Assembly: GCA_023130215.1 (NCBI GenBank)
Contig: JAGMAN010000101.1
Coordinates: 1-5,157 of the forward strand
Source of the DNA: a bacterium
Lineage (GTDB): Bacteria; NPL-UPA2; JAGMAN01
Direction of reading: 5' to 3'
DNA: 5,157 bases
A program made the translations under genes and the position numbers. Positions 3,213-5,157 of this stretch are shown here, piece after piece; the first letter of the stretch is position 1; every line of letters starts with the position of its first letter. Below the pieces are notes generated by a model that was not told the origin of the DNA, ran no database searches, and saw nothing but the letters and a program-made list of their open reading frames with translations.

Positions 3213-4418
3213 ATGAGGATAGCCTATTTTGACTGTTTTTCCGGAATAAGCGGTGATATGATTTCAGGGGCATTGATTGATGCTGGCTTGAAGGTTAAAG
3301 TTCTTGAGGAAGAACTTAAAAAATTAGACCTGAGAGGATATCAAATTAAAACAGGAAAAGTGAAAAAGCATAACTTAGCCGGGAGACAGTTCAGAGTAGA
3401 AGTGACTAAGGGTAGGGTAGGGGAGCGAAATTTAAGCGAGATTCTCAGCCTTATTCAAAGAAGCAGATTGGATGAGGACATAAAGGAGAGAAGTCAGGCT
3501 ATATTTAGAAGGTTAGGAAAAGCTGAGGACAGGGTTCATAGAATGAAGAGGGGAGAGACCCATTTTCACGAAGTGGGAGCAATTGATTCCATAATAGATG
3601 TGGTAGGAGCAGTGATTGGGCTGAAGATACTGAGAGTGGAAAAGATCCATAGCTCTCCCTTATCTCTGGGAAGTGGATGGGTAGAAGTAGAAGGAGGTAG
3701 ATTGCCTGTGCCGGCCCCGGCTACCCTGGAGTTAGTGAAAGGCATTCCCGTTTCATTCTCAGATGTTGAAGGAGAACTGGTTACCCCAACGGGAGCGGCC
3801 ATTATCACTACCTTAACAGAAAACTTTGGCCAGGTTCCTCCCCTGAAGATAGAGTCCATTGGCTATGGAGCTGGCCGAAGAAATTTATCCGGCCGTCCTA
3901 ATTTGTTGAGAGTCCTCATTGGGCAGTCCAGGCCTGTATTTCAAAAACGGCCAGGCGGTAGTTATGAGCGAGATGAAGTGGTAGTGATAGAATCAAATAT
4001 TGATGATATGAATCCTCAGGTCTATGATTATCTGCAGGAGAGATTGTTTGAAGGAGAAGCCCTGGATGTCTTCCTGACCCAGGTGTGGATGAAGAAGAGC
4101 AGGCCAGGCATCCTTCTTACTGTTCTGTCTGAAAAAGCCCAGGCGGAAGATTTGATAAAGATTATATTCTCAGAGACTCCCTCCTTAGGCCTAAGAACCT
4201 ACTCAGTCAGCCGTTACAAACTGCCTCGGGTAGTAAAGGAGGTAAAGACAAAGTATGGGAAAATTAAGGTGAAAATAGCTAAAACCGGAAACAGAATAAA
4301 GCAGATTTCACCTGAATATGAGGATTGCAAAAGGATAGCCAGAGAGAAAGGGATTCCATTCCAGATGGTGTATGAAGAATCAAGAAAAAAGGGGAGGCTT
4401 CATGCAGGGAGTCATTGA
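3213..4418 (+). CDS. larC: LarC: nickel-pincer cofactor nickel insertase (CTP-dependent cyclometallase), single uninterrupted ORF
   Basis: A 401-residue protein of normal LarC length. LarC inserts Ni into pyridinium-3,5-bisthiocarboxylic acid mononucleotide using CTP, finishing the cofactor of LarA-type racemases and epimerases. Diagnostic segments are IAYFDCFSGISGDM (3-16), THFHEVGAIDSIIDVVGA (116-133) with a histidine pair likely to bind metal, GGRLPVPAPAT (161-171), GELVTPTGAA (187-196), the start of the C-terminal domain at ESNIDDMNPQ (260-269), KKSRPG (294-299) and ISPEYEDCK (365-373). In Lactiplantibacillus plantarum the protein is made as larC1 and larC2 joined by programmed frameshifting; here both parts are one frame. 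The ATG at 3213 is set by the stereotyped N-terminus. Its Shine-Dalgarno is poor: AGGAG at 3194-3198 lies 14 nt away, so translation may depend on coupling to larB, which stops 7 nt upstream. Confidence 0.95.
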   Translation: MRIAYFDCFSGISGDMISGALIDAGLKVKVLEEELKKLDLRGYQIKTGKVKKHNLAGRQFRVEVTKGRVGERNLSEILSLIQRSRLDEDIKERSQAIFRRLGKAEDRVHRMKRGETHFHEVGAIDSIIDVVGAVIGLKILRVEKIHSSPLSLGSGWVEVEGGRLPVPAPATLELVKGIPVSFSDVEGELVTPTGAAIITTLTENFGQVPPLKIESIGYGAGRRNLSGRPNLLRVLIGQSRPVFQKRPGGSYERDEVVVIESNIDDMNPQVYDYLQERLFEGEALDVFLTQVWMKKSRPGILLTVLSEKAQAEDLIKIIFSETPSLGLRTYSVSRYKLPRVVKEVKTKYGKIKVKIAKTGNRIKQISPEYEDCKRIAREKGIPFQMVYEESRKKGRLHAGSH

Positions 4419-4605
4419 TCGAATTGAGGAAGAGGTAGCCGTAATTCAATTGAGAGAAGGAGGGGAGGTTATTTTTCCCCTTGACCAGCTTCCTGAAGGT
4501 AGCTCTGAAGGAAGTGTGGTGGAAATTGTCATTAAGTCGGACGAAAAAGCTACCAGTCAGAGAAGAGAAGCTATAAGAAGAAGGCAGGAGCAACTGAAGA
4601 AATGA
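4402..4605 (+). CDS. DUF3006-type small protein of unknown function
   Basis: A 67-residue protein that opens MQGVIDRIEEEVAVIQLREG, followed by GEVIFPLDQLPEG and a charged helical tail ending RRRQEQLKK. The pattern VIDR-E-(D/E)-x-AV, a short beta-rich body, LPEG and a basic/acidic tail is typical of DUF3006 proteins, whose function is not established. The start at 4402 is preferred over an in-frame ATG at 4372 because GGGGAGG (4391-4397) lies 4 nt upstream and the family begins at this methionine. It overlaps the last 17 nt of larC in another frame, so it probably relies on ribosomes finishing larC. There is no signal peptide, membrane segment or cysteine. DUF3006 genes occur next to many unrelated genes, so a link to nickel or phosphate is only a guess. 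Confidence 0.72.
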   Translation: MQGVIDRIEEEVAVIQLREGGEVIFPLDQLPEGSSEGSVVEIVIKSDEKATSQRREAIRRRQEQLKK

Positions 4606-4699: not shown

Positions 4700-4742
4700 G
4701 CCCACGTAGCTCAGTTGGTAGAGCAGGGCTTTCGTAAAGCCA
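4700..4742 (+). tRNA. 5' half of tRNA-Thr(CGU), truncated after the anticodon arm
   Basis: The first 43 bases of a tRNA are clear. They comprise acceptor strand GCCCACG (4700-4706), TA, a D-arm GCTC-AGTTGGTA-GAGC (4709-4724) with the invariant GG, A26, and an anticodon arm GGGCT-TTCGTAA-AGCCA (4726-4742). Its outermost pair is a G-A mismatch. The loop gives anticodon CGT (4733-4735), meaning threonine (ACG codon). After this the sequence turns into an unrelated hairpin. The variable loop, T-arm (GGTTCGAATCC-like) and the 3' acceptor strand expected to read CGTGGGC are absent, and neither appears anywhere downstream to 5157. As it stands the gene cannot give a functional tRNA. It is a remnant of an integration, deletion or rearrangement, or of an assembly join. 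Confidence 0.8.
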
Positions 4743-4792
4743 AAATAAGGGATTACGTAAGTGGTTGAAAACACACGTAATCCCTTTATTTT
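4742..4792 (+). terminator. Long hairpin fused directly to the tRNA remnant (terminator-like or element end)
   Basis: GGGATTACGT (4749-4758) pairs perfectly with ACGTAATCCC (4775-4784). The stem extends outward through AAAATAA (4742-4748) against TTTATTTT (4785-4792) with a single bulged base, giving 17 base pairs. Inside, GTG (4761-4763) can pair with CAC (4772-4774) around an 8-nt loop. The 3' side runs into T-rich DNA, and the A-rich 5' flank gives the mirror pattern on the other strand, as in bidirectional rho-independent terminators. The stem is unusually long for a terminator and begins exactly at the tRNA breakpoint, so it may instead be the tip of an inserted element. Confidence 0.5.
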
Positions 4793-4846
4793 ATTATACT
4801 TACTTTGTTTGTTTCTCTTTGTCTCAATATGCTTCAAAATACCCCA

Positions 4847-4898
4847 TTTTGGTCCTCTTATGGACACTATTTGGACACCAGAATTAAGGAGGTCAAAA
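4847..4898. repeat. Imperfect inverted repeat flanking the TGGACAC pair
   Basis: The segment 4847-4860 (TTTTGGTCCTCTTA) and the reverse complement of 4885-4898 (TTTTGACCTCCTTA) agree at 10 of 14 positions. Further out, CCCCATTTT (4842-4850) faces AAAACTGGGG (4906-4915) with one extra base. The arrangement is roughly symmetrical around 4861-4884. It could be a protein-binding region or a degraded mobile-element end; chance is not excluded in AT-rich DNA. Confidence 0.3.
4861..4878 (+). repeat. Direct repeat TGGACAC, two copies at 11-nt pitch
   Basis: TGGACAC occurs at 4861-4867 and again at 4872-4878, with start-to-start spacing of 11 nt, about one helical turn. Such spacing suits cooperative binding on one DNA face. 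It lies about 120 nt beyond the tRNA breakpoint, so arm-type recombinase sites are one possible reading; this is inference. Confidence 0.4.
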
Positions 4899-4929
4899 GT
4901 ATCTGAAAACTGGGGTCAATATTTCATGG

Positions 4930-4966
4930 AAAAAAACACTTGGATAACCAAAATAGAGCTTTTTTT
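4930..4966 (-). terminator. Possible terminator for the minus-strand frame ending at 4982
   Basis: Seven A (4930-4936) and seven T (4960-4966) flank a small stem TTGG (4940-4943) / CCAA (4948-4951) with an ATAA loop. Read on the minus strand, this lies 16 nt past the stop at 4982 and ends in a seven-T run. The stem is weak and interrupted, so this is tentative. Confidence 0.3.
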
Positions 4967-4981
4967 CTTATTCATGGTTCT

Positions 4982-5157
4982 CTAACCAGATAATTCCCTT
5001 ATTTTTAATAAAACTTTTTTAAAAGAACGAAAAGACAAAATCATCCCTACAAAAATACCCCCCTGCTTCTCTAAACGAGCCTCAAAGACCCTCTCAGGGC
5101 TTAAGAATAGCCTTTTATGAGCATTGATCTTCACAGGTAATATAATAAGAAGTGTGT
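4982..5157 (-). CDS. C-terminal end of an unidentified protein, running in from the right edge (partial)
   Basis: On the minus strand a frame is open from the window edge (first whole codon at 5155) to a TAG at 4984-4982, giving 57 residues with no start codon needed inside the window. It begins TLLIILPVKINAHKRL, continues through SPERVFEARLEKQGGIFVGM (residues 19-38) and ends VLLKIRELSG. The composition looks protein-like, with charged amphipathic helices alternating with hydrophobic strands, whereas chance frames in such AT-rich DNA are usually shorter. The local R-x-x-Q-x-G-x-F pattern is faintly like the C-terminus of FRG-domain proteins, but that is too weak to name it. A possible terminator follows at 4966-4930. 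It may belong to the DNA that broke the tRNA gene. Confidence 0.35.
   Translation of the reverse strand, partial: TLLIILPVKINAHKRLFLSPERVFEARLEKQGGIFVGMILSFRSFKKVLLKIRELSG

What the first reader, a model, noticed from the sequence alone, without database searches (positions are those of the whole stretch)
4700..4792. tRNA-Thr(CGU) cut off after the anticodon arm and fused to a 17-bp hairpin
Acceptor, D-arm and anticodon arm are textbook, then sequence identity ends at about 4741 and a strong inverted repeat begins at once. Elements that integrate into tRNA genes normally restore the 3' half. Here it is neither restored at the junction nor found in the remaining 415 nt. This is either an unusual insertion that destroys the tRNA, a tRNA split by a large insert with its 3' half far away, a scar after deletion, or a false assembly join. 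A rare CGU isoacceptor is dispensable if a UGU tRNA-Thr exists, which would make it a tolerable target.
Basis: partly seen in the sequence, partly recalled or inferred. Interest (0 to 1): 0.62.

Follow-up and report, generated by a model that had tools for sequence, protein, structure and literature searches.

The report
Displaced tRNA half at integration junction
A threonine tRNA gene has been cut in half where a mobile DNA element appears to have inserted itself, leaving the front half behind, a rarer but already catalogued mirror image of the usual pattern in which the back half is left behind.

Summary
Window 4700-4740 matches the first 41 nt of an intact tRNA-Thr(CGU) in a same-genus genome, base for base; similarity then stops and a strong hairpin (4742-4791) begins. 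There is no 3' half in the window or the held genome (a 90%-complete, 136-contig draft).

Best explanation: a tRNA-targeting integrative element of the minority "5'-fragment" kind. Its attachment site carries the tRNA 5' half, so integration displaces the original 5' half and rebuilds the gene at the element's far end. The same genome shows the complete signature at tRNA-Lys(CUU): a displaced 5' fragment, about 3 kb, then an intact tRNA. There the intact gene has TAAGTNNTTG at -24 and the fragment has it at +58. The Thr half has both motifs at exactly those offsets, so it looks like a tRNA restored once and then split again. A viral contig carries a similar layout beside a tyrosine integrase gene. 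In a sister genome the intact gene abuts rpoN; here the rpoN contig ends just short of that point, so the rebuilt gene may lie in an assembly gap.

New member of a known kind (159 of 3,919 islands in Islander). Not shown: the element's integrase, its far end, or read support.

The parts
3213..4418 (+). larC-type nickel insertion protein gene: chromosomal context left of the junction
   Evidence: PF01969 E=1.2e-141; orthologues in G001-G004
4372..4605 (+). DUF3006 gene, last chromosomal gene before the junction
   Evidence: PF11213 E=1.4e-18. In G001 and G002 it is followed by a different conserved gene pair, so the arrangement to its right is specific to this genome
4675..4686 (+). GTAAGTCATTGA motif; its TAAGT starts 24 nt before tRNA nucleotide 1. 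Mark of an element end that supplies a tRNA 5' half (inferred)
   Evidence: 0 expected by chance; same -24 offset at intact tRNA-Lys(CTT) and at the intact G002 tRNA-Thr(CGT)
4700..4740 (+). tRNA-Thr(CGU) 5' half: acceptor strand, D-arm and anticodon arm up to the 3' strand of the anticodon stem
   Evidence: 41/41 identical to intact G002 tRNA-Thr(CGT); partial Rfam tRNA match
4742..4791 (+). Hairpin: arms 4742-4758 and 4775-4791; first bases of the element side of the junction
   Evidence: folding z = -6.3. Homologue in G001 C32:14791-14922, 72% over 134 nt
4757..4768 (+). GTAAGTGGTTGA motif inside the hairpin; its TAAGT starts at offset +58 from tRNA nucleotide 1
   Evidence: Same +58 offset after the displaced tRNA-Lys 5' fragment on C1
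4862..4878 (+). GGACAC direct repeat, possible integrase arm-type sites (inferred)
   Evidence: 0 expected by chance. Compare the AGGGCACAA repeats beyond both ends of the C1 tRNA-Lys insertion and GATCGCATTC repeats on both sides of the viral attP
5136..5157 (.). Contig end; the last 22 bases recur 1 nt from the end of contig C81, an assembly branch point

Best explanation
Window 4700-4792 is one junction of a mobile element integrated in a tRNA-Thr(CGU) gene. The element belongs to the minority kind whose attachment site carries the tRNA 5' half, from about nucleotide 1 to the 3' strand of the anticodon stem. A tyrosine integrase exchanges strands around the anticodon loop (inferred from the extent of the identity block). 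The original 5' half stays at one end, joined to element DNA (hairpin, GTAAGT motif, GGACAC repeats). The element's own 5' half joins the original 3' half at the other end and rebuilds a full tRNA, which must then use an element-borne promoter. Shown: the truncated 5' half, the complete signature at tRNA-Lys in the same genome, the matching motif offsets, and a viral attP of similar layout with an integrase gene. Inferred: that the Thr element has the same integrase type, that the rebuilt tRNA-Thr lies near rpoN in an assembly gap, and that the -24 motif left of this half records an earlier integration that had already replaced it once. The hairpin probably has no separate tRNA-related role; it is part of the element's end.
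For: (1) 41/41 identity to the intact G002 tRNA-Thr(CGT), ending in the anticodon stem. (2) Same genome, contig C1: a tRNA-Lys(CTT) 5' fragment (14433-14394, minus strand) matches the intact tRNA-Lys(CTT) (11344-11272, minus strand) at 39 of 40 bases, diverges at the same structural point, and lies about 3 kb upstream of it in the same orientation; AGGGCACAA repeats lie beyond both ends. (3) Offsets: intact Lys -24, Lys fragment +58, Thr half -24 and +58; the motif is otherwise rare (two hits of a stricter form in 1.01 Mb). (4) Viral contig L090: the motif at -23, a tRNA-Lys(TTT) 5' half cut at the same place, an inverted copy of the motif, repeated GATCGCATTC on both sides, and a tyrosine integrase gene 8617-9798 (PF00589, 8e-23). 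(5) L124, an acidobacterial contig, has a truncated tRNA-Thr(CGT) 5' half with the motif upstream. (6) L135: an integrase gene whose stop codon is the TAA of the motif, 23 nt before an intact tRNA-Thr(CGT). (7) A homologous element end in G001 at a locus with no tRNA half directly beside it. (8) G002's intact gene abuts rpoN; the G000 rpoN contig C23 (3,584 nt) ends inside rpoN.
Against: No integrase gene lies in the window. In G000 the two full-length PF00589 proteins are about 300 aa and may be housekeeping Xer-type enzymes (not tested), and the remaining hits are fragments, none with a tRNA within the stretches read. Neither the far end of the element nor a rebuilt tRNA-Thr(CGU) is in the assembly. 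The C1 tRNA-Lys element also lacks an integrase. The TAAGTNNTTGA motif also occurs in viral contigs away from tRNAs, so it may not be an integrase site. The left flank is a chromosomal gene pair that in sister genomes is not next to a tRNA, so a rearrangement or a join must also be assumed.
Confidence: 0.8

Rival explanations
1. False assembly join or strain mixture: a 5' tRNA fragment and element DNA from different places, or from an element of another organism, were joined in a metagenome assembly.
For: The genome is a 136-contig draft and the window is a whole contig. The contig end shares a 22-mer with the end of C81. DUF3006 is followed by other genes in both sister genomes.
Against: The two motifs sit at the same offsets from tRNA nucleotide 1 as at the independent tRNA-Lys element, which a random join would not produce. 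The right side has a homologue in a same-genus genome.
Confidence: 0.09
2. Decayed scar: an element integrated and later left by deletion, removing the 3' half for good, so the locus is now an inert pseudo-tRNA.
For: No 3' half or intact copy in the held genome; no element gene recognised in 4793-5157. A CGU isoacceptor can be dispensable when a UGU tRNA-Thr exists (general knowledge).
Against: Intact tRNA-Thr(CGU) genes were found in G002, G003, G004, G006 and G008. The expected place of the 3' half is a contig gap, so its absence is not shown. The 5' half has no mutation relative to G002.
Confidence: 0.09
3. Intron-interrupted or trans-spliced split tRNA, with the hairpin as part of an intron or pairing helix.
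For: The same genome has a tRNA-Asp(GUC) interrupted by a group I intron, so tRNA introns do occur here.
Against: The tRNA-Asp intron sits in the anticodon loop and is followed by a complete 3' exon; here the break lies in the 3' strand of the anticodon stem. Rfam finds no intron in the window. The hairpin arms pair with each other, leaving no free helix for a 3' half, and no 3' half is found.
Confidence: 0.02

Closest known systems
Islander-type genomic islands with a displaced 5' tDNA fragment (159 of 3,919 islands; PMC4383910)
   Same: Displaced 5' tRNA fragment; identity block ending at the anticodon arm (Islander subsite A). At tRNA-Lys in the same genome the regenerated tRNA lies on the expected side, in the same orientation, at an allowed distance.
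   Different: For tRNA-Thr only one end is available, and no integrase gene is present, which Islander requires.
pTN3-like archaeal integrases whose attB is the tRNA 5' half (PMC8371274)
   Same: The element supplies the 5' half, so the rebuilt tRNA would use an element promoter.
   Different: Those are archaeal; no relationship of the enzymes was tested because the integrase here is not in the assembly.
Viral contig IMGVR_UViG_3300030098_006942 (L090), putative attP
   Same: Motif at -23, tRNA 5' half ending at the anticodon stem, second motif near +60, repeated arm-like sequences.
   Different: Different tRNA (Lys UUU); second motif inverted rather than direct; different arm repeats; no matching hairpin noted at the junction.

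Membership tests
tRNA-targeting genomic island with displaced 5' fragment | Truncated tRNA end fragment identical to a cognate tRNA gene | tested here: met
   41/41 identity to the same-genus tRNA-Thr(CGT)
tRNA-targeting genomic island with displaced 5' fragment | Regenerated full tRNA downstream on the same replicon, same orientation | tested here: inconclusive
   Not in the assembly for Thr; the expected site is a contig gap. Met for tRNA-Lys on C1
tRNA-targeting genomic island with displaced 5' fragment | Tyrosine integrase gene within the element | tested here: inconclusive
   None recognised in the roughly 400 nt of element available before the contig ends; none next to a tRNA in the G000 places examined
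tRNA-targeting genomic island with displaced 5' fragment | Identity block bounded by a tRNA arm used as a crossover site (anticodon or T arm) | tested here: met
   Block ends in the 3' strand of the anticodon stem for Thr and Lys; L090 and L124 are cut there or near it
Group I intron tRNA | Catalytic core following the 5' exon, then a 3' exon | tested here: not met
   No Rfam intron in the window at E<=1; no 3' exon. The window ends 417 nt after the break, so a longer insert is not covered
Split (trans-spliced) tRNA | Separate 3' half with a complementary leader | tested here: not met
   No 3' half within 3 mismatches in the held, 90% complete genome; hairpin arms are self-complementary

The most novel reading that the evidence does not exclude
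A family of integrative elements, spread over several bacterial phyla, uses tRNA 5' halves and is defined by paired TAAGTNNTTG motifs at fixed places (about -24 and about +58) around the half. In this sparsely sampled phylum such elements have repeatedly replaced the front halves and promoters of tRNA genes for Thr, Lys, Arg and Met.
Probability: 0.2. Interest if true: 0.45.

Novelty: new member of a known kind. Interest (0 to 1): 0.27.

Why it matters
Readers mostly expect the 3' half of a tRNA to be displaced by integration; this shows how a 5'-fragment junction in a fragmented metagenome assembly can look like a destroyed tRNA. It also suggests that host tRNA genes can come under element-borne promoters, possibly more than once at the same gene, and gives a simple sequence signature for finding more such elements.

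Tried and rejected
Searching for a stray 3' half found only tRNA-Thr(GGT). The apparent third tRNA half on C86 proved to be a complete tRNA-Asp with a group I intron. The exact junction sequence and a Thr-specific truncation pattern gave no viral contigs. DNA similarity in phages and plasmids gave only short matches in or around the tRNA half. The 57-aa ORF at the contig end has no relative in the other 97 genomes searched. A joined C23-C4 locus could not be shown. The gene pair that follows DUF3006 in sister genomes is on C114 in G000 in another setting, so it does not mark the far side of the insertion. A search of papers for the motif letters gave nothing relevant among the titles listed. 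The hairpin was tested as a terminator by a simple scan: none called, though that scan allows loops of 3-8 only. Integrase fragments in G000 and G001 examined for tRNA neighbours: none.

Full report
What is there. The window is the whole of contig C4 of a draft genome (G000; 1.01 Mb, 136 contigs, 90% complete). Left to right it carries a PhoU-like gene, a Na/Pi cotransporter, larB- and larC-type genes and a DUF3006 gene, then at 4700 a tRNA-like sequence that ARAGORN does not accept and that Rfam matches only below its cut-off with the 3' part missing. From 4700 to 4740 it is identical, base for base, to the intact tRNA-Thr(CGT) of same-genus genome G002; from 4741 on the identity is at chance level. 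A hairpin with 17-nt arms follows at once (z = -6.3). The 3' half is not in the held genome with up to 3 mismatches.

Relatives. Intact tRNA-Thr(CGT) genes with near-identical 5' halves were found in G002, G003 and G004, and somewhat more diverged ones in G006 and G008. In G002 the gene abuts rpoN. In G000 the rpoN orthologue lies on contig C23, which ends inside rpoN, about 100 nt of gene short of that place. If the gene order is shared, the place where a 3' half or rebuilt tRNA would be expected is an assembly gap, and its absence from the assembly means little. In G001 and G002, DUF3006 is followed by a different conserved gene pair; the link DUF3006-tRNA-Thr is specific to G000.

The key comparison lies in the same genome. 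Contig C1 carries a tRNA-Lys(CTT) 5' fragment (14433-14394, minus strand) matching 39 of 40 bases of an intact tRNA-Lys(CTT) at 11344-11272, about 3 kb downstream in the same orientation. This is the published signature of an island that displaces a 5' fragment: fragment, insert, regenerated tRNA (PMC4383910). AGGGCACAA repeats occur beyond the fragment and before the intact gene. The insert holds an MqsA-like and a DUF2283 gene but no recognised integrase, so it is a remnant or a non-autonomous element.

Geometry. The intact tRNA-Lys has TAAGTCATTG at offset -24 from its first base; the Lys fragment has TAAGTCCTTG at +58. The window's Thr half has TAAGTCATTG at -24 and TAAGTGGTTG at +58. The 12-base form GTAAGTNNTTGA occurs twice in the window, at these two places only, with 0 expected. 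At the Lys element the -24 motif belongs to the end that supplies the new 5' half, and the +58 motif to the end next to the displaced fragment. The Thr half carries both, so it looks as if it had been supplied by an earlier integration and then split by a second. The intact G002 tRNA-Thr also has a motif at -24, which fits an older event (inference). GGACAC repeats at 4862-4878 are candidate arm-type sites.

Elsewhere. Viral contig L090 carries a similar layout that reads as an attP: motif at -23, a tRNA-Lys(TTT) 5' half ending at the anticodon stem, an inverted motif near +60, GATCGCATTC repeats on both sides, and a tyrosine integrase gene alongside. Of 23 contigs of named genomes with the motif just upstream of a tRNA start, 22 hold intact tRNAs and one (L124, an acidobacterial MAG) a truncated tRNA-Thr(CGT). 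In L135 an integrase gene ends with the TAA of the motif, 23 nt before an intact tRNA-Thr(CGT). In G000, tRNA-Arg(CCT) has a related motif at -22, and in G003 tRNA-Met has it at -23. A same-genus homologue of the hairpin and following sequence (G001 C32, 72% over 134 nt) sits behind a cold-shock gene, not directly behind a tRNA half; a near-identical cold-shock gene plus hairpin occurs on G000 C67. The hairpin side is therefore an element part that can occur without this tRNA.

Mechanism. Tyrosine integrases commonly exchange strands at the anticodon loop, flanked by the anticodon stem (review PMC8371274). If attP carries the tRNA 5' half, integration leaves the chromosomal 5' half at one end and rebuilds the tRNA at the other, which is the arrangement seen at tRNA-Lys. 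The rebuilt tRNA would then depend on an element promoter, as stated for pTN3-like elements and called seldom encountered in bacteria (same review). The arrangement is shown for tRNA-Lys by sequence and inferred for tRNA-Thr.

Limits. No integrase for this element was found, the far end is missing, and reads were not available. The motif also occurs in viral contigs away from tRNAs, so a role as an integrase binding site is a guess; here it serves only as a marker of position.

Verdict. An ordinary but less common integration signature, seen from one end only, probably because of an assembly gap. New member of a known kind; modest interest, mainly for the repeated use of tRNA 5' halves in a sparsely sampled phylum (9 genomes held).

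Noticed in passing
G000 C86:5946-6345 (about L069:1447-1843): tRNA-Asp(GUC) gene interrupted in the anticodon loop by a group I intron (RF00028, 88.5 bits) with a complete 3' exon; tRNA-Asp is not among the bacterial group I intron hosts I know of (from memory, not checked).
   Followed up: partly
G001 C32:14340-14382 (L071): tRNA-Ser(CGA) 5' fragment, also cut at the anticodon stem, followed by AATTGACAA repeats; its first bases after the break (AAATGGGCCATCT) resemble those after the G000 tRNA-Lys fragment (AAATGGGCTATCT).
   Followed up: partly
G000 C67 near 13170-13490 (L068:5170-5487) and G001 C32:14540-14846 (L071): Nearly identical cold-shock gene plus hairpin containing ACGTAAGTCATTGAAA, at different chromosomal settings in two species: a possible mobile cassette.
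   Followed up: partly
L145, L146, L149 (viral contigs): CGTAAGTNNTTGA-like motif occurs more than once in a short stretch with no tRNA detected in the locus; its role is unknown.
   Followed up: no
G000 C104:1165-1340 (L141) and G003 C67 (L081): Upstream of tRNA-Arg(CCT) and tRNA-Met respectively: the motif near -22/-23 and a shared stretch CCTGAATCGTGTTAAAA, probably remnants of related elements.
   Followed up: partly
window 5136-5157: The last 22 bases of the contig recur one base from the end of contig C81: an assembly branch point.
   Followed up: partly
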